Assembly (NCBI GenBank): GCA_016871275.1
Contig: VFZG01000032.1
Span: forward strand, 1 to 43,833
DNA from: Acidimicrobiia bacterium
GTDB lineage: Bacteria; Acidobacteriota; Vicinamibacteria; Vicinamibacterales; UBA2999
DNA length: 43,833 nt
Direction of reading: 5' to 3'
Shown here: positions 16,512 to 31,771 of the stretch, one piece after another
How the letters are laid out: each line of letters starts with the position of its first letter
Position numbering within the stretch: the first letter of the stretch is position 1
Notes under the pieces: generated by a model
What the model saw: only the letters and a program-made list of their open reading frames with translations
What the model was told of the DNA's origin: nothing
The model's database searches: none
Translations under genes and position numbers: made by a program

Positions 16512-16723
16512 TTGATGATTACTCCACAGGCGATCGGGGTTCCGGGGTTGCCGCCGGGCTCGGTCTTGCCGTCGTCCGCCCGCTCGTGAACGGGCAGCGC
16601 GGTCCCGCCGTTGGTCCTCTTGGCATCCTTGATGTCGACGTGCTTCATCTGCGCCGACACCGCGGTACCGATCAGCCAGAACAGCGCGACCGTAGTGCGC
16701 ATGCGAGTCATGATTTTCATCAT
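16508..16723 (-). CDS. Small secreted protein of unknown function (71 aa)
   Basis: Not recognised. The N-terminus is a signal peptide (MRTTVALFWLIGTAVSA, cleavage before Q). The mature part is about 47 residues, polar, with HVDIKDAKRTNGGTAL and PIACGVIIK, and has a single cysteine. The start is one of two adjacent ATG codons (16723, 16720) after AAGGG. The stop overlaps the GTG start of the cupredoxin-like gene by four bases, so the two products are probably made together. The gene diverges from the SAM-riboswitch operon. A role as partner of the copper protein is only a suggestion from this overlap. Confidence 0.6.
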   Translation of the reverse strand: MMKIMTRMRTTVALFWLIGTAVSAQMKHVDIKDAKRTNGGTALPVHERADDGKTEPGGNPGTPIACGVIIK

Positions 16724-16743
16724 ACCCTTAGTGACTCAACGCA

Positions 16744-16772
16744 TTGACATATGTAGATTCATGTCGTACTAT
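16744..16772 (+). promoter_or_regulatory. Sigma70-type promoter of the riboswitch operon
   Basis: A perfect TTGACA (16744-16749) is followed after exactly 17 bases by TACTAT (16767-16772), which matches TATAAT at four of six positions. Transcription would begin near 16779-16780, about 20 bases before the riboswitch closing stem. Confidence 0.65.
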
Positions 16773-16798
16773 CGCGTCATTCCCGCACGACCGCGGGA

Positions 16799-16900
16799 CT
16801 TATCCAGAGTGACCGAGGGCACAGGCCCGACGACGTCACAGCAACCGGACGGCAAGCGTCACGGTGCTAATTCCTGCCCGGCACGGCCGGGGGAGATAAG
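16799..16900 (+). ncRNA. SAM-I (S-box) riboswitch
   Basis: S-adenosylmethionine-sensing leader. Stem P1 is CTTATC (16799-16804) with GATAAG (16895-16900). The kink-turn side starts CAGAG. P2 has GTGAC (16809-16813) with GTCAC (16835-16839) and GGGC with GCCC inside. The conserved CAGCAACC follows. P3 is GACG with CGTC (16848-16860). The hallmark core GGTGCTAATTCCTGC lies at 16863-16877. The 3' strand of P1 sits between the Shine-Dalgarno sequence (GGGGGAG, ending 16895) and ATG at 16903. SAM binding that closes P1 should therefore hide the ribosome binding site, pointing to translational rather than terminator control. A MetK-like gene in the operon fits SAM feedback. Confidence 0.93.
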
Positions 16901-16902
16901 CG

Positions 16903-18321
16903 ATGACGGACTCACACACACGTCTCTCCACGCTTGGCGCGTACGGCTTCGAAACTCAAGAACCCCTCATCCTGGCCGCGCTCGTCACCGGCGACCCGCT
17001 CCTGCTCATCGGCAAGAGCGGCACGGGCAAGACGTTCCTCCTGAATTCAATCAGCGAGGCGCTCGGGCTCGAACACCGGCACTACAACGCCAGTCTGATC
17101 TCGTTCGACGACCTCGTCGGCTTTCCCTACCCGGACGACGAGAAGACCGCCGTCCGGTTCCTCGAAACGCCGGCCACGGTATGGGGCGCCGAGTCGGTGC
17201 TGATCGACGAAATCTCCCGCTGCAAGCCGGAACACCAGAACCGGCTGTTCTCGCTGGTCCACGAGAAGAAGATCCAGGGGCTGCCGCTCGCGTCGCTCCG
17301 CTACCGCTGGGCCGCGATGAACCCGTGCACGACCGACCAGTCGCCGGGCGAGGAATACCTCGGCTCGGAACCGCTCGACCCCGCGCTGGCCGACCGGTTC
17401 GCCGTCATCCTCGACGTCGGCGACTGGACGTCGCTCGACGAGACCGACCGCCGGCGTGTGGCCGACCCGGCCGGCGAGGGTGTGACGTCCGACGACGGCG
17501 GCGCGCTGCGCGCGAAGCTGGCGCAGTGGCAACCCGCCTTTGCGGCCGCCCTGCGCAACTGCCCGCCGCAGGTCATCGGCTACGTCTCGGCTGTGGCGAC
17601 GGCGCTGAACAACGCCGGCATCCGCATCTCGCCGCGCCGCGCCCGCCTGCTCTCGCGCACGCTCGTCGCCGCGCTCGTCATCGACGATGACGCGCTGACG
17701 GACGTCAGCAGCCGGCGCACCGACCTGTTGTTCCGTCTCGTCCTCGATGGGAGCCTGCCGCACCGGGCGTGGGGCGTTGCCCCGGACGCCGACAAAGTGC
17801 TGGCCGCCCACACGCTCGCGTGGAACGCGACGATGGCGAGTCCGCGCGACCGGTGGCTGCACCAGTTCCATCTGGAGCGCGCGCTCGACCGCAAGGCGCG
17901 CCTGCTGCTGAAGCACTGCCCGGACGCCGACACCGGCACACTCGCCGTGGAGCAGCTCCTGGCGAACGAACCGAGGGCATGCGCGGCAGCCTTCGCGCTG
18001 GCGGCGTTCCCGGCGGCCCTGGCGGGACGATTGCCGATTGGCGCCGAGGGCGTGAACGACCTGGGCCGCGCCGCCCAGCCGCTGCTCACGGTCGATGGCG
18101 AGGTCACATGGCAGGAGCGTCTGTCGGACGCGAACACCACGCACCCCGAACTGGCGGCCTACGCCGCCGTGCTCGAGCCGCTGGAGGAAGCGCGGCGGAA
18201 GCGCGCCGAACAGCTGCTCTGGTACTGCGCGGTCGCCAAGATCGCCGTGGCCGATCCGCGCAAGCTGGAAGCCGAGTTCGACCGCTGCGTGCGTGTCTTC
18301 GCGCGGGAGGTGGCGTCATGA
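16903..18321 (+). CDS. MoxR-like AAA+ ATPase (472 aa)
   Basis: AAA+ ATPase of the MoxR/CbbQ-like kind, which usually remodel partner proteins together with a VWA protein. Walker A is GKSGTGKT (37-44) and Walker B is VLIDEIS (D102, E103). A sensor 1 asparagine sits in WAAMNPCTTD, and DPALADRFAVILDV is the typical arginine-finger region. The C-terminal 250 residues, helical with a late coiled-coil-like EEARRKRAEQLL, are not recognised. First gene after the riboswitch. Its ATG is seven bases from the Shine-Dalgarno sequence and two from the P1 stem. Its stop overlaps the next start as ATGA. Confidence 0.88.
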   Translation: MTDSHTRLSTLGAYGFETQEPLILAALVTGDPLLLIGKSGTGKTFLLNSISEALGLEHRHYNASLISFDDLVGFPYPDDEKTAVRFLETPATVWGAESVLIDEISRCKPEHQNRLFSLVHEKKIQGLPLASLRYRWAAMNPCTTDQSPGEEYLGSEPLDPALADRFAVILDVGDWTSLDETDRRRVADPAGEGVTSDDGGALRAKLAQWQPAFAAALRNCPPQVIGYVSAVATALNNAGIRISPRRARLLSRTLVAALVIDDDALTDVSSRRTDLLFRLVLDGSLPHRAWGVAPDADKVLAAHTLAWNATMASPRDRWLHQFHLERALDRKARLLLKHCPDADTGTLAVEQLLANEPRACAAAFALAAFPAALAGRLPIGAEGVNDLGRAAQPLLTVDGEVTWQERLSDANTTHPELAAYAAVLEPLEEARRKRAEQLLWYCAVAKIAVADPRKLEAEFDRCVRVFAREVAS

Positions 18322-18782
18322 CGCTCGCGGCGGACCAAGGTTGGCCGCTCCACGGTCCCGGCCTGCTGATGAACAGCGGCGGTCCGTGCAGCCGCACGCG
18401 TTCTGAACGCATCCGCACGACCGTCCTCGGAGACGACGATGGCCCGGTGCGGTGCCCGAAAGTGCTGCGGGTGGCCATCGACTTCGGCCGGCAGAGCCCG
18501 TTGCGATGCGTCGAGCGGTGGCTCCGCGCGGCCGGCTTCGAGACGGGGAACGAAGCGCGCGCCATCGTCTCGCTGCCGGATCGCCGGTGCATCTGCCAGG
18601 TCGATCCCCACCCGGTGCCGGTCAGCGCCGGTTCGCTGACGGCCCTCGAGGGCCTCGGCCTGGCGCTCGTGCTCGGGCTGTGCACGGCCAGCTTCTACGA
18701 CCCGGCACGGCCGGTGCTCTGGACCACGACGAGCCTCACGCGTCGTCTCGTGCTCTACGACGGAGGAGGGTTCTACGCATGA
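18318..18782 (+). CDS. Unknown 154-aa protein between MoxR ATPase and VWA protein
   Basis: Not recognised. ATG at 18318 overlaps the MoxR stop (ATGA), and the TGA at 18780-18782 overlaps the start of the VWA gene (ATGA). The coding assignment therefore rests on tight coupling in a conserved-looking operon. The protein has no signal peptide. It contains several cysteines (SGGPCSRTR, VRCPKVLRV, LRCVERW, RRCICQVD) and a hydrophobic alanine/leucine segment near LEGLGLALVLGLCTASF. It could be a small adaptor for the ATPase or VWA protein; no direct evidence supports this. Confidence 0.65.
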   Translation: MTLAADQGWPLHGPGLLMNSGGPCSRTRSERIRTTVLGDDDGPVRCPKVLRVAIDFGRQSPLRCVERWLRAAGFETGNEARAIVSLPDRRCICQVDPHPVPVSAGSLTALEGLGLALVLGLCTASFYDPARPVLWTTTSLTRRLVLYDGGGFYA

Positions 18783-20143
18783 AGCCCCACGAGTTTCACG
18801 ACCTCTACCGGGAACTCATCGAAGAGAACCCGCTCGCGGTCCGGGCGGTGCTGAAGATCCTCGCCGTCGAGTTCACGACGGACGTGCCCACGCTGGCCGT
18901 CACCTGCGAGGGACGCCCGCGCCTGCTCGTCAACCTGAAGTTCGTCAGCGAGCACTGCCGCGGCCCCGCGGAAGTCAAGGCCGTCGTCTGCCACGAGTTC
19001 CTGCACGTCCTGCTGCGCCACACGGAACGGCTGACACCGTCCACGCGCGCCGAGCACATCGCCTTCGACGCGGTGATCAACGCCATCATCCACCGGTCGA
19101 TGGGCGAGTCTGCCAGCGCGATGATGAGCCGGTACTACGCGAACGAGAAGGGCGTGTGCCGGCTGCTGCGGCCGCCGACCAAAGACGAGCGGAGCAAGGC
19201 CGAGAGTGCTCGGTGGAGCCGGAGCTTGCCGAAGCGTGGCAGCCCGCGGCAGGTGTCGCAAGCCTGGATGGGCCTCTACAACGGTCAACTGGTGGCCGAC
19301 GACATCCGCGAGCTGATCGAGGACCTGCAGTCGCAGATGCAGCAGACCAGGCTCCTGCTCATCGGCGACCACGACAGCGACGGCGCCGGCGTGAGCGCCG
19401 CCGCAGACGACGTCCTGGCGGCCGCGCTCGAAACTTCACTGAAAGCGATGAACGGCAGCGGCGTATTCCGAAGCCCGAAGGGCCGCGGCCTGGGCGCCGA
19501 GGCGTACGCCGCCGAGTTCAGGCAGGCCGACACGGCGGTCGAACGCTGGCGCCGGCAGACCTACGACGTGCTGCGGCGGCACCTCGTGCCCGACCCGCGT
19601 TCGGCGGCGCGCGAGCACGCTTCGTCCGACTACACGCTGCCGGTGCTGTCGTCGGGCGATCGCCGGGCCGCGCTCCGGGCGCGCTGGAGCCCGTTGCTGC
19701 CAGACGCGCGGTGGAACACCGCGAAACCGTCGCGTGCCGGGTCCGCGCACGTCTACCTGGACGTGAGCGGGTCGATGCACGCCGAGATGCCGCACATCGT
19801 CGCGCTGCTCGGCCGGCTGTCGCGCTGCATTCGCCGGCCGTTCTGGGCGTTCAGCACGAAGGTGGCGCCGGCGCGGATCGAGCAGGGCCGCCTGATCGCG
19901 GACACGACCGGCGGCACGAGCATGGCCTGCGTGCTCGAGCACGTCGCCTGCACGAGGCCTCGCGCCGCGGTCGTCGTGACCGACGGATACATCGAAGCCG
20001 TCAGCCGCGCCGACGCCGCGGCGGCGGTCGCCTCGACCCGGCTGCACGTCATCGTCACGCGCGACGGTACCACGACGCCGATCGCGGCCGCCGGACTGCC
20101 GTATACCCAACTGGCGAGGTTCCCCAATGATCCGCATAAGTGA
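18779..20143 (+). CDS. HExxH metallopeptidase-like/VWA protein, DUF2201 type (454 aa)
   Basis: Two recognisable halves. The N-terminal half has a zincin-like motif CHEFLHVLLRH (H72, E73, H76), with FDAVINAIIH following as in DUF2201_N putative metallopeptidases. The C-terminal third is a VWA-like domain with MIDAS start YLDVSGSM (D328, S330, S332), a TGGTS loop and VVVTDGYI. This architecture typically pairs with MoxR-type ATPases, which is the case here. The start is supported by GGAGGAGGG and the ATGA overlap with the upstream gene. Its last 17 bases overlap the MetK-like gene. Whether the HExxH site is proteolytic is unknown. Confidence 0.85.
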   Translation: MKPHEFHDLYRELIEENPLAVRAVLKILAVEFTTDVPTLAVTCEGRPRLLVNLKFVSEHCRGPAEVKAVVCHEFLHVLLRHTERLTPSTRAEHIAFDAVINAIIHRSMGESASAMMSRYYANEKGVCRLLRPPTKDERSKAESARWSRSLPKRGSPRQVSQAWMGLYNGQLVADDIRELIEDLQSQMQQTRLLLIGDHDSDGAGVSAAADDVLAAALETSLKAMNGSGVFRSPKGRGLGAEAYAAEFRQADTAVERWRRQTYDVLRRHLVPDPRSAAREHASSDYTLPVLSSGDRRAALRARWSPLLPDARWNTAKPSRAGSAHVYLDVSGSMHAEMPHIVALLGRLSRCIRRPFWAFSTKVAPARIEQGRLIADTTGGTSMACVLEHVACTRPRAAVVVTDGYIEAVSRADAAAAVASTRLHVIVTRDGTTTPIAAAGLPYTQLARFPNDPHK

Positions 20144-21209
20144 AGTGGTGCTGCCCGGCCATCCGGACAAGTTCTGCGATCAGGCCGTCGACGCGATCGT
20201 GGCCGAGTGCTACCGCGCGGACCCGCGCGCCTACTGTCAAGTCGAGATGAGCGTTTGGGCCGACCAGGTGTTCCTGACCGGCGGCATCGTGACGCGACGA
20301 CCGCTGCGGCGCGCGCCGGCGGAGATCGTGAAGACCGTCGGGCGCGAGATCGGCTACACGGGCGCCAACGCCATCGACGCCGCGCGCTACGACGTCGGCG
20401 ACACCGTGCGCCAGAAGCGCCAGGATCCGCGGCGCTGGACCGACAAGGTGAACGACCAGTGCGTGACCATCGGCTGGGCCGGCTACGACGAGAAGGTGTC
20501 GTGGCTGCCGCCCGAGCACTACCTGGCGCATGCGCTCGGGGAGGCGCTCGCGTCAAGCTGCGGCGCGGGGCGGCTGGCGGGGCAGGGGCCCGATGGCAAG
20601 CTGCTCGTGCGCGTGCGCGAGAGCAGCGACGTGTGGCACGTCGAGCAGGTGCTCGTCACGCTGCAGCAGTTGCCGGACACGCGCTTCGTCGATCTGTGCG
20701 CGTGGACGACGGCGGAACTGCGCGCGTCGTACGAGACCGTGCGCGCGCGCGACCGGCGGTGGGCGGCGCCGTTCGACGACATCGAACTGCTCGTCAATCC
20801 CAACGGCCCGCTCGTCAACGGCGGCAGCGACGGCGACAACGGCCAGACCGGGCGCAAGCTGGCCGTGGACTACTACGGCCCGCGCGTGCCGATCGGCGGC
20901 GGCGCGCTCTCAGGCAAGGACCTGAGCCACATCGATCGCGCGGCCGCGTACGCGGCGCGGCAGGCGGCGGTCCAGGCCGTGGCGTCCGGCGCGCGCGAGT
21001 GCCGCGTGACGCTCGCGTATGCGCCCAATCGCGACCTGCCGCTGGACGTCGTATACGAGATGGACGGGCGCGGGGATCGGCAGACTGCGTCGTGGTTGGC
21101 GCACTCGGCCGTCCGCGAGCGGTATGGGGCGACGAGCTTCGATGCGGCGCTCGGCCGCGGCCGGCACTTCACGGATCTGTCGCAGGTGTGGAACCGGGGG
21201 GTGGCGTAG
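20127..21209 (+). CDS. metK: Divergent S-adenosylmethionine synthetase (MetK-like, 360 aa)
   Basis: Predicted to make SAM from ATP and methionine. Retained signatures: GHPDK (11-15), REIGY, NDQ (109-111, the GDQG region), NGGSDGDNGQTGRK (K244) and GGGALSGKD (257-265) followed by RAAAYAAR. It is about 20-30 residues shorter than usual MetK (about 384-400), partly in the gating-loop region (90-108). By manual alignment to E. coli MetK, the methionine-contacting glutamate of GGEITT is isoleucine (I54), GDQG is NDQC, and the lysine after SGKDPS is histidine (H268). It therefore could be a housekeeping-independent paralogue with altered activity. Translation is likely coupled to the VWA gene; the leader is a SAM riboswitch. 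Confidence 0.85.
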   Translation: MIRISEVVLPGHPDKFCDQAVDAIVAECYRADPRAYCQVEMSVWADQVFLTGGIVTRRPLRRAPAEIVKTVGREIGYTGANAIDAARYDVGDTVRQKRQDPRRWTDKVNDQCVTIGWAGYDEKVSWLPPEHYLAHALGEALASSCGAGRLAGQGPDGKLLVRVRESSDVWHVEQVLVTLQQLPDTRFVDLCAWTTAELRASYETVRARDRRWAAPFDDIELLVNPNGPLVNGGSDGDNGQTGRKLAVDYYGPRVPIGGGALSGKDLSHIDRAAAYAARQAAVQAVASGARECRVTLAYAPNRDLPLDVVYEMDGRGDRQTASWLAHSAVRERYGATSFDAALGRGRHFTDLSQVWNRGVA

Positions 21210-27684: not shown

Positions 27685-28146
27685 GTGTCGAGCCGACGAC
27701 CGATCGGAGCGCGAGGCCAAGCCGGGCAGGCCGCGCTCGAGACCATGGTCGTGATGAGCTTTTTGTTCACGCTCATCTTCGGCTTCGTCCACATCTGCAT
27801 GTTCGTGGTCACCAAGTCGATGACCAACTATGCGGCGTTTACCGGTGCGCGGGCCATGCTGGTCGACGCCAGCCTCGACAATGCCGCGCGCCAGGTGATG
27901 AGCGAGATCCAGTGGTGGGCCGGTGGCGCGGCGGTCAACGACGCCAAGGTCACCATTCAGGCCTATCAACTCGGGCCGCGTCACGGCGCCAAGCGGCGCA
28001 CCGGCGTGCGGATCACCTATCCACTCCCGTTTGGGTATCCGATCTTCCGAAACGGTCTCGGCACGGTACGCGCGATCGGTTTTGCGCCGACCGTCGAGAT
28101 GAAGCCGGAATACGCAGTGGCCGAAGAGGGAGACAACCAGAAATGA
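27685..28146 (+). CDS. TadE-like pseudopilin (153 aa)
   Basis: TadE-type minor pilin. A short leader is followed by G and QAALETMVVMSFLFTLIFGF, with glutamate at +5 and a hydrophobic helix, then a soluble domain of about 110 residues starting YAAFTGARAMLVD. The GTG start at 27685 is five bases after the pilin stop. Its stop overlaps the next gene (ATGA). Such proteins are processed by the same prepilin peptidase and are needed for Tad pilus assembly. Confidence 0.8.
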   Translation: MSSRRPIGARGQAGQAALETMVVMSFLFTLIFGFVHICMFVVTKSMTNYAAFTGARAMLVDASLDNAARQVMSEIQWWAGGAAVNDAKVTIQAYQLGPRHGAKRRTGVRITYPLPFGYPIFRNGLGTVRAIGFAPTVEMKPEYAVAEEGDNQK

Positions 28147-29144
28147 CGTTCGCGTTGAGGCCGCGGTCCGAAGCCGGCCAGACCACCGCCCTCGTCTGCG
28201 CGATGTTGTTCACGCTGACGATGTTCGTGGCGTTGGTGGTGAACGTCGGCCAGATGGTGAACCGGCGCGTGGCGCTGCAAGTGATCGCCGACGCCGGCGC
28301 GTGGTCAGGCGCGACGGCGCAGGCCGTCCAGCTCAATCACTACGCGTACTGGAGCCGCCTGGTCCAGAACGCCTACCAAAACGCGTCGGGCACCAGCCTC
28401 GGTTTCAATTTCAGCGAATGCTGGTCAGGCGTCGCGGCCGTGGGACTGTTCTATTACGCGCAAAGCGGGATGCTGAGGGCAGTCGTCAACTTCAATAACA
28501 AGGCCTACGCCCAGGCGGAGAGCAACAGCCTCTTCAATATCGACGATCTCTTTCCCGGCGAACGCACGAATTTTGGGTTTTCGACGATGGCCGGACCGGA
28601 GGATGGCAACGTGTACGCGCCGCTCAACGGCAATATTCTGCCGTTCCCACTCAGCCAAGGCGACAGGCTGTACACCGGTGATCACGAGTGGAAAAACGAG
28701 ACCATCATGCAGCCGCTTATCGAGTTGAGTAACTCGTTTTTTGGCAGCGCGCCATGGGCGGTGTCGCAAGCCGGGTCAGGCTCGGAAAACTGGCAGTGCG
28801 CGACGTTATTTCCGCCGACTTCGTTCCGCATCCCCATGATAGGTCCGGCCGGCTACAAGCTGCAGAAGCTCGGTCAGGCGTACATCTTCGTGTGGACCGT
28901 CAAGGAAAACAAACCGACCAAGGTTCTGTTCTTCGACAAATACCTCGGGCCGGACGCCGTGCCGGCGATGACGGCGGTGGCTGTCGCTAAAGCGGTCGGC
29001 GGCGACGTGCACAAAGGCATATCGCGCTACCGGGCGAAGATGGTGCCGGTCAGCGAATACAGTCTCTCGGGCGGGAGGATTAGCGATCCGCTGGCCCGTC
29101 CAGGACGCATCTTGCCCAATCCCTTTCGCCAGATCGTTCACTGA
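28143..29144 (+). CDS. TadG/TadE-like pilus protein (333 aa)
   Basis: N-terminal leader followed by G and QTTALVCAMLFTLTMFVALVVNVGQMVN, one hydrophobic helix as in the TadG/TadE-like (Tad domain) group. A 280-residue extracytoplasmic domain of unrecognised fold follows. The glutamate at +5 is replaced by leucine, so cleavage may differ from that of the pilins or not occur. ATG overlaps the previous stop. TadG proteins span inner membrane and periplasm in Tad systems; the C-terminal VWA domain of some TadG is not seen here. Confidence 0.7.
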   Translation: MTFALRPRSEAGQTTALVCAMLFTLTMFVALVVNVGQMVNRRVALQVIADAGAWSGATAQAVQLNHYAYWSRLVQNAYQNASGTSLGFNFSECWSGVAAVGLFYYAQSGMLRAVVNFNNKAYAQAESNSLFNIDDLFPGERTNFGFSTMAGPEDGNVYAPLNGNILPFPLSQGDRLYTGDHEWKNETIMQPLIELSNSFFGSAPWAVSQAGSGSENWQCATLFPPTSFRIPMIGPAGYKLQKLGQAYIFVWTVKENKPTKVLFFDKYLGPDAVPAMTAVAVAKAVGGDVHKGISRYRAKMVPVSEYSLSGGRISDPLARPGRILPNPFRQIVH

Positions 29145-29151
29145 GGCCGCC

Positions 29152-29622
29152 ATGCCAAGACCACTACGCTGGCGCAACGAGCGCGGCACCGCCGTCACCG
29201 AGACCCTGCTGCTAACGTGGATCATCATCGTCTTCGTGGCCGCGTCACTGCAGCTGTTTCGCGTCAACCAGGCGATTTACTCGTCGATCACCACCGCGCA
29301 CATGTTGATGTTCGAAGGCGCGCTGGAGGCCAATTGCTTCAAGCAGAGCGACAAGTGCATCTTCAACTCCGACGGTCATGCGCAGGTCAAGTGGACGCCG
29401 GCCAAGATGCCGGAGATATTGGTCGAGCGAGTGGGGATGTTTGCGTCGCGGCTGACGGCGCCGCTGCGGCTGACCGCGTGGTCGGGCGCGGCGACCAAGC
29501 GGGCCGACGGCTATAAGCGGACGCGGATGGGCGCGGGCACGTACTATCCAATTTGCAGGTGCGCCAGCTTCGGTGGCTGCCTGGACAGCCTGCAGAGCGT
29601 TCCCGGTCCAGGTTTCTGTTGA
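29152..29622 (+). CDS. TadE-like pseudopilin with cysteine-rich tail (156 aa)
   Basis: Class III signal with leader ending ERG, followed by TAVTETLLLTWIIIVFVAAS, with glutamate at +5. After the helix comes a soluble domain of about 110 residues with six cysteines (NCFKQSDKCIF near 62-70, and CRCASFGGC and a final FC at the C-terminus) that could form disulfides in the periplasm. It starts eight bases after the previous gene. Function as a minor pilin is inferred from the signal and position only. Confidence 0.72.
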   Translation: MPRPLRWRNERGTAVTETLLLTWIIIVFVAASLQLFRVNQAIYSSITTAHMLMFEGALEANCFKQSDKCIFNSDGHAQVKWTPAKMPEILVERVGMFASRLTAPLRLTAWSGAATKRADGYKRTRMGAGTYYPICRCASFGGCLDSLQSVPGPGFC

Positions 29623-29661
29623 CGTTCCGGCGACACCACGTTTTCCGGGAGGGACGGGATT

Positions 29662-30510
29662 ATGCGAAATAGAGGACGCCTCGTTGCGGCCGTCGCGGCC
29701 GGAGTCGCCGCGGTGGTGCTCACTTGGCTGTACATCAGCATCCGCGAGGCGTCACTGCTCTCACAGTCCGAGCCGCAGATGGTGGTCGTCTCGAAGGTGG
29801 ATATTCCCGGCAACAGCGTGATCGACGCCGGCATGTTCGAGCTCAAGCCGGTGCCGTCGGCATTCGCCCAACCGCGAGTGGTGACCAAGCCCGAGGATGT
29901 GCAGGGTCGTGTGGCGACCGTGCCGATCGCGGCGGGCAGCCAGATCCTGGCGACGATGCTCGGCGACGAATCCGAGGGGGCGCTGGCGTATGAAGTGCCG
30001 TCGGGGCAGCGCGCCCTCTCGATCGCCGCGGCCGACGTGATGGGCGTCGGCGGACTCGTGCGCCCGGGCAACCGCGTCGACATCATCGGCACCTTCGAAT
30101 ACGGACGCCCCACCGGGATCAGCCAGAACGGCACCATCAGTTACGCCGACGAGCGAACCGAAACCCGCTTGATGATGCAGGACGTGCGCGTGCTCGCCGT
30201 CGACAAGGAACATCGTCGCCGCGGCGCGCCCCCGCGCCCGGTGCCGACGGCCGAGGCCGCGGCCGAAGCCGCCGCCACGCCCGAGCCCGACATCCGCAAC
30301 GTCACCGTGCTCGTCAGCTTGCGCCAGGCGCAGGAGCTCATCCTGGCGCAGGAGATTGGCACGCTCACGCTCGCCTTACGATCGAACCTCGATGGCGGCC
30401 GCGTCGAGAATCTCCCCAACCTCGATCCGATCACGCTGCTTGGCGTGCAGACACCGGTCAAGCGCCGTCCGCAACCCGTCTGGCGCGAACTGCGCGGCGG
30501 TGGATTCTAG
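29662..30510 (+). CDS. cpaB: Flp pilus assembly protein CpaB/RcpC (282 aa)
   Basis: Periplasmic CpaB/RcpC, thought to link the secretin to the inner-membrane machinery. One N-terminal transmembrane anchor (8-27), then a SAF domain beginning VVVSKVDIPGNSVID and a beta-rich core (RALSIAAADVMGVGGLVRPGNRVDII). A Pro/Ala-rich insertion at about 190-210 interrupts the second half, and a basic proline-rich tail ends the protein. It starts 39 bases after the TadE-like gene; GGGAGGGACGGG precedes ATG. Confidence 0.88.
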   Translation: MRNRGRLVAAVAAGVAAVVLTWLYISIREASLLSQSEPQMVVVSKVDIPGNSVIDAGMFELKPVPSAFAQPRVVTKPEDVQGRVATVPIAAGSQILATMLGDESEGALAYEVPSGQRALSIAAADVMGVGGLVRPGNRVDIIGTFEYGRPTGISQNGTISYADERTETRLMMQDVRVLAVDKEHRRRGAPPRPVPTAEAAAEAAATPEPDIRNVTVLVSLRQAQELILAQEIGTLTLALRSNLDGGRVENLPNLDPITLLGVQTPVKRRPQPVWRELRGGGF

Positions 30511-30520
30511 GAGGCAGATC

Positions 30521-31771
30521 ATGAAGTCGTCCTGGTGGTTGTCGGCGGCCTTCGTGCTCGGCGTCGCGGCGATCGCGGTGGCGCAAATCGGTGGCGCCCC
30601 TGCCGCCGCGCCGCCCCGCGAGGTTCGCCTGCTGGTCGGCGATCAATTCCTTCTCGAACCGGGGTTCGCGGTTGGCGACATCGCCGTGGCCGATCCGAAG
30701 ATTGCGGATTACCGGGTGCGCCCCGGGCGCGTCGCGATCTTGCTGCTCGGTGTCGGTAGTGGCCGCACGCGGTTGATCCTGTGGCACCAGGACAACAAGA
30801 CCCGCGACGAATTCAATCTGGTGGTCGAGACTCGTGAAGAGGCGCAGGCGGAAGCCAAATTGCGCGCCTTGCTGCGCGACTTTCCGTCGGTGAAAGTCGA
30901 ACGCGTCGGCGGCGCGCTCGTCGTGTCCGGGGTCGTCAGCGCAGAAGACGATTTGGCGCTGATCGAGCGGATGGCGGCGTCGGCCAAAGCCGAATCGTTC
31001 GTACGCTACACGCCACCGGTTGGCACGCCCGCCCTCGGCGGGGCGCTGCCGCCGCCGGGTCCCCGTTCGGCAACCGCCGCGCCACCGGTTGGCACGCCCG
31101 CCCTCGGCGGGGCGCTGCCGCCGCCGGGTCCCCGTTCGGCAACCGCCGCGCCACCCGGTACGCCGGGTGCGGCAGCGTTGCCCGGCGCGTTCGAGATTGA
31201 GTACGAAGTTCAGGTCCTCGAGGCCAGCATCACTTTCGGTAGCAATTCGTACGAAACCGGGATCGAACCGAGCGGCCGCGTGTTGTACACGACAAAAGTG
31301 CGCACCACGGTCGGCGGCAACGTTGAACTGTTTGTTCCCGGCAAGAGCCTTGCGTCAAAGGACATCAAGATTTCTCCGAAAGAGCTCGAGACCGGCGGCA
31401 TCCGCCTCACGCTCACGCCGTTCGAGTTCGAAGAGCAGCAATTGAGCACCCGCATTCTGGTCGAGACGAATCTGCCGATTAAGTCGCCGGCCTACGTGCC
31501 CGGCGGCTGGCGGCGCGCGCGGTGGGAATCCGCCAATGAGATTACAGCGCCGTTCAGCGTGGCGGGCGCGGAGTTGCTGGTGGTGCCTGAGCTGTTGACC
31601 GGCGGCAGCAGGCTGTCGAAGATCTCCAGTGTCGGGCGAACGCTCGGCGGATTGCCCGGCGTCTCGAGCATCCCGGGCGGTCAGTACGCCGGTTCCGTGC
31701 CCTATTACGACAAAAATCGCAAGACGCACCTGCTGGCGCTGTTCCGCGCGCGCGTCGTGGCGGGGCGATAG
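30521..31771 (+). CDS. cpaC: Secretin CpaC/RcpA (416 aa)
   Basis: Outer-membrane secretin of the Tad pilus. Signal peptide 1-21. The N-terminal pilus-assembly domain (REVRLLVGDQFLLEPGF to FNLVVETREEA) is followed by a BON-like segment (VKVERVGGALVVSGVV). A Pro/Gly linker holds an exact 23-residue duplication (165-187, 188-210). The C-terminal secretin domain carries EVQVLEASITFGS, GGIRLTLTPFEFEE and a final membrane-inserting region. It starts ten bases after cpaB with AGGAGG upstream of ATG. No CpaD or lipoprotein pilotin gene is adjacent. Confidence 0.88.
   Translation: MKSSWWLSAAFVLGVAAIAVAQIGGAPAAAPPREVRLLVGDQFLLEPGFAVGDIAVADPKIADYRVRPGRVAILLLGVGSGRTRLILWHQDNKTRDEFNLVVETREEAQAEAKLRALLRDFPSVKVERVGGALVVSGVVSAEDDLALIERMAASAKAESFVRYTPPVGTPALGGALPPPGPRSATAAPPVGTPALGGALPPPGPRSATAAPPGTPGAAALPGAFEIEYEVQVLEASITFGSNSYETGIEPSGRVLYTTKVRTTVGGNVELFVPGKSLASKDIKISPKELETGGIRLTLTPFEFEEQQLSTRILVETNLPIKSPAYVPGGWRRARWESANEITAPFSVAGAELLVVPELLTGGSRLSKISSVGRTLGGLPGVSSIPGGQYAGSVPYYDKNRKTHLLALFRARVVAGR
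31013..31150. repeat. Exact 69-bp tandem duplication inside the secretin gene
   Basis: The unit 31013-31081 recurs without a single difference at 31082-31150. It is 23 codons long and encodes PPVGTPALGGALPPPGPR plus SATAA in the linker before the secretin domain. A third, partial motif (PPGTPGAAALPG) follows. Base identity suggests a recent expansion. Confidence 0.97.

What the first reader, a model, noticed from the sequence alone, without database searches (positions are those of the whole stretch)
16744..21209. SAM-I riboswitch controlling a MoxR-VWA-MetK operon
Seen: a complete S-box aptamer (P1 CTTATC/GATAAG, CAGCAACC, GGTGCTAATTCCTGC) with its P1 3' strand between the Shine-Dalgarno sequence and the ATG of a MoxR-like ATPase. 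Four genes follow with ATGA or 17-base overlaps: ATPase, unknown, HExxH/VWA, MetK-like. Known: S-box riboswitches normally govern methionine/SAM synthesis and transport, while MoxR-VWA pairs act in cofactor insertion or complex remodelling. Inference: the ATPase-VWA machine is made when SAM is low and works with a dedicated SAM synthetase, perhaps activating a SAM- or metal-dependent enzyme. I know of no described system with this composition.
Basis: partly seen in the sequence, partly recalled or inferred. Interest (0 to 1): 0.88.

Follow-up and report, generated by a model that had tools for sequence, protein, structure and literature searches.

The report
SAM-controlled operon with MetK and chaperone
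A four-gene cassette, switched by RNA sensors of the cell's methyl donor SAM, pairs an unusual SAM-making enzyme with what looks like its own protein-remodelling machine, recurs in unrelated bacteria, and may be a SAM supply or repair system.

Summary
A SAM-I riboswitch (78.3 bits, cut-off 44.4) lies at 16797-16902; its P1 3' strand sits between the Shine-Dalgarno and the ATG of a MoxR-type AAA+ gene. Gene overlaps are 4, 4 and 17 bases.

The unit is not a local accident. Twenty-nine of 30 genome loci with a close MetK relative show all four genes in this order (some cut or broken), in about eight phyla. SAM-family matches precede 23 of 34 testable cassettes (9 above Rfam cut-offs), of different classes (SAM-I, SAM-I/IV, SAM-II), so SAM control probably arose repeatedly. 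In two Verrucomicrobia an ordinary MetK accompanies the AAA-ORF2-VWA genes. The genome also has a housekeeping metK.

The cassette MetK forms its own clade: catalytic, metal and ribose residues are kept, methionine-contact residues are not (K269 to H and I302 to P in 27 of 27; E55 lost in 26).

Best reading: an auxiliary SAM synthetase with a dedicated MoxR-VWA machine, translated when SAM is low. Product, client and regulation are untested. Four of eight paper searches targeted this combination; no listed paper was recognisably about it.

The parts
16744..16772 (+). sigma-70-like promoter (TTGACA-17-TACTAT), 10 of 12 matches
   Evidence: consensus scan (1 found, mean 0.1 in shuffles); not tested for function
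16797..16902 (+). SAM-I (S-box) riboswitch aptamer
   Evidence: RF00162, 78.3 bits vs gathering 44.4
16890..16895 (+). Shine-Dalgarno GGGGAG, inside the P4/P1 part of the aptamer
   Evidence: sequence; leader layouts printed
16895..16900 (+). P1 3' strand GATAAG, between SD and ATG
   Evidence: cmscan alignment
16903..18321 (+). MoxR-type AAA+ ATPase (472 aa), Walker A GKSGTGKT
   Evidence: AAA_5 35.2 bits; alignment A4 of 27 sequences with invariant Walker A/B residues
18318..18782 (+). ORF2, uncharacterised 154-aa protein with an N-terminal NxGGPxSR-like motif
   Evidence: no Pfam match above cut-off, no NCBIfam or PHROG match; 28 sequences aligned; dN/dS 0.22-0.46 in three close pairs of relatives
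18779..20143 (+). HExxH metallopeptidase-like plus VWA (MIDAS DxSGS) protein, 454 aa
   Evidence: H72, E73, H76, D328, S330, S332, T380, D402 invariant in the 29-sequence alignment; DUF2201 domains below Pfam cut-off
20127..21209 (+). divergent S-adenosylmethionine synthetase (MetK type 1), 360 aa
   Evidence: PF02773, PF00438 above cut-off; active-site comparison; own clade

Best explanation
A mobile, SAM-repressed SAM-supply module. When SAM is plentiful the leader aptamer folds and hides the ribosome-binding site (in some hosts it probably terminates transcription). When SAM falls, the four proteins are made as one coupled set. The fourth is an additional SAM synthetase of a separate clade. 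The MoxR AAA+ and VWA-metallopeptidase proteins form a remodelling machine dedicated to that synthetase, as CbbQ-CbbO is to rubisco or NorQ-NorD is to nitric oxide reductase: the VWA MIDAS docks the client, and ATP-driven remodelling frees, activates or quality-controls it. ORF2 is perhaps a small adaptor.

Shown: riboswitch homology, gene linkage, co-inheritance, residue changes. Inferred: regulation direction (from leader anatomy), SAM as the product, MetK as the client.
For: SAM-I match in the window. The only other SAM-I hit found in the genome (150 of 222 first-look candidates scored) precedes homoserine dehydrogenase and a PLP enzyme that looks like a methionine-pathway gene (by eye).

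29 of 30 loci with a close MetK relative show the four-gene order. Called VWA and MetK genes overlap in 25 of these 29, by exactly 4 bases in 24.

SAM-family matches lie ahead of the first gene in 23 of 34 testable loci; 28 of the 31 SAM-family matches in the scanned loci are at that position and strand (gene places). At the first gene the aptamer abuts the start codon in the window, L026, L006, L008 and L010 (gaps 0-5 nt).

AAA, VWA and cassette-MetK distances agree (rho 0.80-0.95) but agree poorly with the same hosts' housekeeping MetK (rho 0.09-0.26; 20 hosts). AAA-ORF2-VWA sit near an ordinary MetK in L160 and L161. An ordinary metK lies upstream in L011, and in L030 with one gene between, both also with the cassette MetK. 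metA follows the cassette in L162.

dN/dS is below 0.5 for all four genes in three pairs. Eleven tested catalytic, metal, phosphate and ribose residues are kept in 27 of 27 MetKs, and K17 in 26.

Two congeners (G311, 97% complete; G427, 80%) have the cassette MetK as their only MetK found, and no archaeal type.
Against: The methionine-contact residues E55, Q98, K269 and I302 are changed, and I102 in the 4 type-1 rows printed, so the product may not be SAM. No direct evidence that AAA/VWA touches MetK. L131 has a sub-threshold SAM-I/IV leader and AAA-VWA but no MetK nearby. Eleven of 34 testable leaders show no SAM aptamer, and 8 of the 23 positives have search-wide E-values of 0.04-1.9. Two of the 29 loci have broken or unmatched parts (L026 VWA split and MetK match ending early; L068 MetK matches only its first 21 residues). 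The housekeeping comparison is not zero: AAA against housekeeping MetK reached rho 0.26, with 19 of 999 permutations as high. The sole-MetK argument is weakened by G425 (91% complete), where no MetK of either kind was found, so gaps occur. Energy folding of the leader does not recover P1.
Confidence: 0.5

Rival explanations
1. The cassette MetK is a neofunctionalised adenosyltransferase: it keeps the ATP/triphosphate chemistry but transfers adenosine to another acceptor (a different amino acid, or a thioether in a larger molecule or protein presented by the AAA-VWA machine), making a SAM analogue or a modified protein.
For: 27 of 27 type-1 MetKs keep H14, D16, E42, D118, D163, K165, D238, R244, K245, K265 and D271, yet K269 to H and I302 to P are fixed and E55 is lost in 26; the 37 ordinary MetKs compared (two of them from viral contigs) have Q98, K269 and I302 in all and E55 in 36 with one gap. 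The six type-2 MetKs also lack E55, Q98 and R229 and, where the protein is complete, I302.
Against: Archaeal MATs also lack E55, Q98 and K269 and hold the methionine carboxyl with a histidine and asparagines (passages of PMC3853416), so the fixed H269 and N117 could be another way to hold methionine. Type 2 keeps K269. Ordinary MetKs accompany the AAA-ORF2-VWA genes in L160 and L161. SAM is the ligand expected for the leaders.
Confidence: 0.22
2. A conflict (anti-phage) module in which collapse of the SAM pool, for example by a phage SAM-degrading enzyme, relieves the riboswitch and releases a MoxR-VWA-metallopeptidase effector, while the MetK restores SAM.
For: Patchy, multi-phylum spread and no conserved flanks found; MoxR-vWA pairs are the core of proposed conflict systems (passages of PMC7159879); conserved HExxH site; a deaminase-domain protein (dCMP deaminase and MafB19-deam matches) follows AAA-VWA in L131.
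Against: No PADLOC match for ORF2, VWA or MetK and only weak short hits for the AAA; bpMoxR model at 14 bits against cut-off 27; apart from L131, no defence-like family recognised among the 38 neighbour proteins scanned with Pfam.
Confidence: 0.12
3. One reading: the machine inserts a cofactor into, or activates, some other SAM- or metal-dependent enzyme encoded elsewhere.
For: MoxR-VWA pairs such as NorQ-NorD insert metal (abstract starts in the listing: PMC9976466, PMC13036017).
Against: No fifth gene family is shared by 3 or more of 30 flanks; MetK is linked in both clades.
Confidence: 0.1
4. The AAA-VWA genes and the MetK are functionally unrelated passengers of one SAM-repressed methionine regulon operon.
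For: metK and metA are usual members of such regulons (recalled); L131 has AAA-VWA without MetK.
Against: Same order in 29 of 30 loci, mostly overlapping genes and co-inheritance over about eight phyla; pairing with an ordinary MetK in L160 and L161.
Confidence: 0.06

Closest known systems
CbbQ-CbbO rubisco activase (MoxR AAA+ plus VWA)
   Same: A MoxR-type ATPase and a MIDAS-bearing VWA protein working on one enzyme (PMC4660213: title and abstract start in the listing; CbbQ-CbbO details recalled).
   Different: Here the linked enzyme is a SAM synthetase, the VWA protein carries an HExxH domain, ORF2 is extra, and SAM-class leaders are present.
NorQ-NorD / RavA-ViaA MoxR-VWA pairs
   Same: AAA+ plus VWA co-chaperone (abstract starts and listings: PMC9976466, PMC3893208).
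   Different: Different clients; no MetK and no SAM control known to me.
MoxR-vWA ternary conflict systems (PMC7159879)
   Same: MoxR-vWA core plus a third component.
   Different: No metK, SAM synthetase, methionine adenosyltransferase or riboswitch occurs in the main text held; the bpMoxR model is not met.
SAM-II / SAM-I/IV tandem riboswitches (PMC9481103)
   Same: That review counts seven SAM-II before SAM-I/IV tandems and 164 double SAM-I (passages); L016 and L017 are of the first kind if their sub-threshold SAM-II matches are real.
   Different: In the passages I saw, a downstream AAA-VWA-MetK operon is not named.
Bacterial MetK (TIGR01034)
   Same: Same family and catalytic/triphosphate residues.
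   Different: 159.7 bits against the equivalog cut-off 309.4; altered methionine-contact residues; shorter stretch between Q98 and D118; separate clade.

Membership tests
SAM-I riboswitch RF00162 | covariance model at or above gathering score | tested here: met
   78.3 vs 44.4 bits, full length
SAM-I riboswitch RF00162 | binds SAM and switches expression | not testable with these tools
   needs in-line probing and a reporter
MoxR AAA+ ATPase | AAA domain with Walker A and B | tested here: met
   AAA_5 35.2 bits over cut-off 22; AAA_3 26.9 vs 27 just below; invariant G37, G40, G42, K43, T44, D102, E103 in 27 sequences
VWA-domain co-chaperone | MIDAS motif DxSxS...T...D | tested here: met
   D328, S330, S332, T380, D402 invariant in the 29-sequence alignment; motif definition recalled
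DUF2201 (PF13203/PF09967) | Pfam gathering score | tested here: not met
   18.9 vs 23.2 and 21.7 vs 26.4 bits
Metallopeptidase | HExxH zinc motif | tested here: met
   H72, E73, H76 invariant in the 29-sequence alignment; activity not tested
SAM synthetase (Pfam) | N-, middle and C-terminal domains over cut-off | tested here: inconclusive
   N 55.5 and C 77.9 bits over cut-offs; middle 25 vs 29 below
metK equivalog TIGR01034 | equivalog cut-off 309.4 bits | tested here: not met
   159.7 bits
metK equivalog TIGR01034 | methionine-binding residues E55, Q98, K269 | tested here: not met
   window protein has G, K and H in the alignment; family counts
MoxR-vWA-beta-propeller ternary systems | bpMoxR profile | tested here: not met
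   14 vs 27 bits
Known anti-phage systems (PADLOC) | PADLOC model match | tested here: not met
   no hits for ORF2, VWA, MetK; AAA only E 6e-05 and 0.005 over 41 and 26 residues

The most novel reading that the evidence does not exclude
The cassette MetKs are a new adenosyltransferase family that uses ATP's 5' carbon on a non-methionine or protein-bound thioether acceptor, loaded by a dedicated MoxR-VWA-metallopeptidase machine, and made only when SAM is scarce: an alternative sulfonium cofactor or protein-modification pathway.
Probability: 0.15. Interest if true: 0.95.

Novelty: new variant of a known kind. Interest (0 to 1): 0.74.

Why it matters
SAM synthetase is a central enzyme, and no dedicated AAA+ remodeller or activase for it is known to me. 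A module shared by bacteria of about eight phyla, with SAM-I, SAM-I/IV and SAM-II leaders in different hosts, suggests that low SAM is exactly when it is needed. If the machine acts on MetK, it extends the rubisco-activase idea to cofactor supply. If the altered pocket means another product, it points to an unknown sulfonium metabolite. An in vitro assay would tell these apart.

Tried and rejected
Virus origin. For it: the MetK matches PHROG 1569 (E 5.6e-47), the VWA protein PHROG 1314 (E 3.8e-17, labelled HNH endonuclease) and the AAA PHROG 1297 (E 1.4e-10), so distant phage relatives exist; 125 phage records match the MetK below 60% identity, two viral contigs at 30-34%, and one phage record the AAA at 30% over 36% of its length. 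Against: the four phage or viral MetKs compared keep the ordinary methionine residues and lie with ordinary MetKs; the VWA gave no confirmed relative in viral contigs, phages or plasmids, nor did the MetK alignment in viral contigs.

Defence system: PADLOC gives nothing specific.

Fifth conserved gene: none among flanks of 30 loci; the only other cluster in 3 or more loci was of minus-strand ORFs lying over the VWA gene. Neighbour Pfam scans gave unrelated families apart from metA in L162.

Replacement of housekeeping MetK: suggestive in G311 and G427, but G425 lacks any MetK hit, so gaps explain it as well.

ORF2 in the type-2 clade: only a short shared motif in 4 of 7 loci examined, and HMM E-values of 0.025 and 0.086 in two of them; not claimed.

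RNA folding of the leader by energy alone does not recover P1 (z -2.35, 5 of 200 shuffles as low), so the switch claim rests on the covariance model.

Tree: the careful search did not finish; the quick tree is quoted, with long branches that may attract.
Full report
OBSERVATION. The window holds a full-length SAM-I aptamer at 16797-16902, 78.3 bits against a gathering score of 44.4. The Shine-Dalgarno GGGGAG (16890-16895) and the P1 3' strand GATAAG (16895-16900) sit directly before the ATG at 16903. A promoter-like pair ends at 16772, 24 bases before the aptamer, and no terminator-like site was found in 16600-17000. The four genes overlap by 4, 4 and 17 bases.

PARTS. Gene 1 is a MoxR-like AAA+ ATPase: AAA_5 over cut-off, AAA_3 just below; the only PDB sequences matched by the family profile at E 0.001 are midasins. 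Gene 2 has no credible family match. Gene 3 has an N-terminal HExxH domain and a C-terminal VWA domain, both nearest to DUF2201 but under Pfam cut-offs, with invariant HExxH and MIDAS residues in a 29-sequence alignment. Gene 4 is a MetK homologue: N and C domains over cut-off, middle domain below, and about half the score required of a metK equivalog.

THE GENOME. It has 3.96 Mb in 124 contigs. It carries a second, ordinary metK on another contig. The whole-genome SAM-I search found one other element (150 of 222 candidates scored; other SAM classes were not searched genome-wide). That element lies ahead of homoserine dehydrogenase and a PLP enzyme that reads like a cystathionine synthase/lyase (by eye). 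So the window cassette shares its regulator class with methionine synthesis.

DISTRIBUTION. A scan of the genome collection (84,980 species) with the MetK gave 64 loci. Thirty of them (L005-L033 and L068) hold a close relative; the rest match at about 30-38%. Twenty-nine of 30 show AAA, ORF2, VWA and MetK in that order. Among these, L007, L013 and L015 (AAA) and L029 (MetK) are cut by contig ends. In L026 the VWA gene is split between frames and the MetK match stops early, and in L068 only the first 21 MetK residues match; these may be broken genes or assembly errors. L033 has only part of a MetK. Called VWA and MetK genes overlap in 25 of 29 loci, ORF2 and VWA in 27, AAA and ORF2 in 17; start sites were called by rule, so these counts are approximate.

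By record title (phylum of some genera recalled) the 29 are Acidobacteria 9, Verrucomicrobia 6, Elusimicrobia 4, Gammaproteobacteria 3, and one each of Bacteroidia, Riflebacteria, Myxococcota, Kiritimatiellia, Caulobacteraceae, Gemmatimonadetes and unspecified Proteobacteria. All are titled MAG, so single assignments may be binning errors. One Verrucomicrobia relative with an ordinary MetK lies in a 4.0-Mb contig.

PREVALENCE. In the window's phylum, 14 of 396 genomes have a VWA match at E 1e-20 or better; 7 of these are at E below 1e-170. In the phylum of G010 (Akkermansiaceae MAG) it is 5 of 288, and in the phylum of G418 (Caulobacteraceae MAG) 1 of 398, the centre genome itself. In the window's genus, 5 of 9 genomes have it. 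Of the four congeners whose flanks I compared (flanks of about 4-23 kb a side), none share an orthologous flank; only hits of 23-33% identity between the window and L125, at two window genes, were seen. The unit behaves as a sporadic, probably horizontally moving cassette.

A SECOND CLADE. Weaker VWA matches (E around 1e-20 to 1e-53) lie in AAA-VWA-MetK neighbourhoods too: L128, L130 and L162 show all three; L086, L129 and L089 show VWA-MetK on short stretches. L131 has AAA-VWA without MetK. L163 and L091 are cut after the VWA; the genome of L163 has MetK-like matches on other contigs. A quick tree puts type 1 (28 rows) and type 2 (5 rows) MetKs on one side of a branch with 100 SH-aLRT support against all 42 ordinary, linked and phage MetKs; both sides have long branches.

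ORDINARY MetK PARTNERS. In L160 and L161 an ordinary MetK, equal to E. coli at all compared residues except R229, precedes AAA-ORF2-VWA. In L160 some 0.9 kb lies between. Both genomes have a further ordinary metK. In L011 an ordinary metK lies directly upstream of the whole cassette, in L030 with one gene (an AAA ATPase) between. In L162 metA follows. The AAA-VWA pair is thus linked to MetK of three kinds.

ACTIVE SITE. Against E. coli numbering, 27 of 27 type-1 MetKs keep H14, D16, E42, D118, D163, K165, D238, R244, K245, K265 and D271; K17 in 26. K269 is H in 27, I302 is P in 27, G117 is N in 27, E55 is G/A/S/T in 26 and E in one, Q98 is variable (Q in 7), F230 is L in 18. Four partial type-1 rows (L026, L029, L033, L068) were left out. 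The 37 ordinary MetKs (including two from viral contigs) have Q98, K269 and I302 in all and E55 in 36, with one gap. The six type-2 proteins have R at 55, G, K or E at 98, D at 117 and K at 244; K17 is R in three; K269 is kept and I302 is P where the protein is complete.

Passages of PMC3853416 give D238 and E55 as amino-group, Q98 and K269 as carboxyl and I102 as side-chain contacts, and state that archaeal enzymes use a histidine and asparagines for the carboxyl instead. So the pocket is rebuilt, but methionine is not excluded as substrate.

LEADERS. I scanned the window and 40 loci (L005-L033, L068, L086, L124, L128-L131, L160-L163) with Rfam; L007, L013, L015, L023, L025, L026, L030 and L033 only at gathering level. 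Seven cannot be judged because the 5' end or the cassette is missing (L007, L009, L013, L015, L033, L086, L129). Of 34 left, 23 have a SAM-family match ahead of the first gene (in L022, L027 and L031 with a short reading frame between). Nine are above the gathering score (window, L005, L010, L016, L017, L023, L024, L026, L163). Six more have E at or below 0.01 (L006, L008, L011, L019, L031, L124). Eight have E 0.04-1.9 (L018, L022, L027, L029, L130, L131, L160, L161) and count only by position.

Eleven have none there: L012, L014, L020, L021, L028, L032, L128, L162 at E-value level, L025 and L030 at gathering level, and L068, whose SAM-II match lies 1.8 kb upstream. Of 31 SAM-family matches in these scans, 28 are in the leader position; the others are in L026 (ahead of the ORF before the leader), L068 and L128. 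The matches belong to SAM-I, SAM-I/IV (one Rfam clan) and SAM-II (no clan). SAM-II then SAM-I/IV tandems occur in L016 and L017, the SAM-II below cut-off; such tandems are known (PMC9481103, passages).

EXPRESSION PLATFORM. In the window and L026 the SAM-I aptamer ends at the base before ATG. In L006, L008 and L010 a SAM-I-like aptamer ends 4-5 bases before the start; the alignments of L006 and L008 show almost no P4. SAM-II-like elements reach the SD or start in L019 and L029, and a hairpin with a T-run follows the first SAM-II of L005 and the SAM-I/IV of L131 (read by eye). All fit OFF switches. This is anatomy, not a measurement.

CO-INHERITANCE. In 20 hosts with all proteins and a housekeeping MetK (of 24 for which one was recovered), tree distances correlate at 0.95 (AAA-VWA), 0.81 (AAA-MetK) and 0.80 (VWA-MetK), none of 999 permutations as high. 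Against the housekeeping MetK they are 0.26, 0.21 and 0.09 (19, 42 and 222 of 999 as high). The housekeeping MetK is not a species tree. dN/dS is 0.09-0.46 over four genes and three close pairs.

HOUSEKEEPING COPY. Of 29 cassette hosts searched, 23 show a full ordinary metK match. Six (G001, G002, G009, G010, G012, G423) show none or a fragment. G311 and G427 (which show the same places as G002 and G001) are 97% and 80% complete congeners, but G425 (91%), without cassette, also shows none. No archaeal-type MAT was found in seven genomes tested.

MECHANISM. The most economical reading is a second SAM synthetase plus its own MoxR-VWA machine, expressed when SAM is short. The machine may release bound inhibitors or product, assemble the enzyme, or remove damaged copies with its HExxH site. 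I put this at 0.5; the altered substrate pocket keeps a different product open (0.22, and 0.15 for the boldest form).

LITERATURE. Four of my eight paper searches looked for this combination; from titles and abstract starts no listed paper was about it, but most listed papers were not opened. The other four served other questions. Only open-licence PMC papers are held. For PMC7159879, PMC2864571, PMC3853416 and PMC9481103 I saw passages only; for all others, the search listings with abstract starts.

Noticed in passing
window 16525-16712 (-): A short reading frame on the minus strand looks, by eye, like a signal peptide joined to the C-terminal end of a Cu/Zn superoxide dismutase (GTPIACGVI); possibly a remnant.
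   Followed up: no
window 27912-31768 (+): Tad/T2SS pilus-type proteins (PF13400, PF13629) downstream of the cassette, with no sign of linkage to it.
   Followed up: no
L006, L008, L010, L124 leaders: SAM-I-like aptamers scoring 32-40 bits, below the Rfam cut-off: perhaps a compact variant that Rfam under-calls. A spermidine-sensing variant of SAM-I is described (PMC10853860, title and abstract start), so the ligand should be tested.
   Followed up: partly
L131 6036-11545: AAA-VWA pair behind a sub-threshold SAM-I/IV element with no MetK found; a protein with cytidine-deaminase and MafB19-like deaminase matches follows.
   Followed up: partly
L022, L025, L027, L028, L031 upstream of AAA: Verrucomicrobial cassettes have a short reading frame rich in W/H upstream of the AAA gene (seen by eye); no Pfam match in the two scanned, L022 and L028.
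   Followed up: partly
L026 1936-2849: Two SAM-I elements flank a 206-aa unknown ORF ahead of the cassette, whose VWA and MetK genes look broken in this record.
   Followed up: partly
L128 12215-12323: A weak SAM-I match (30.9 bits) overlapping the start of an 801-aa reading frame without Pfam match, downstream of a type-2 cassette.
   Followed up: no
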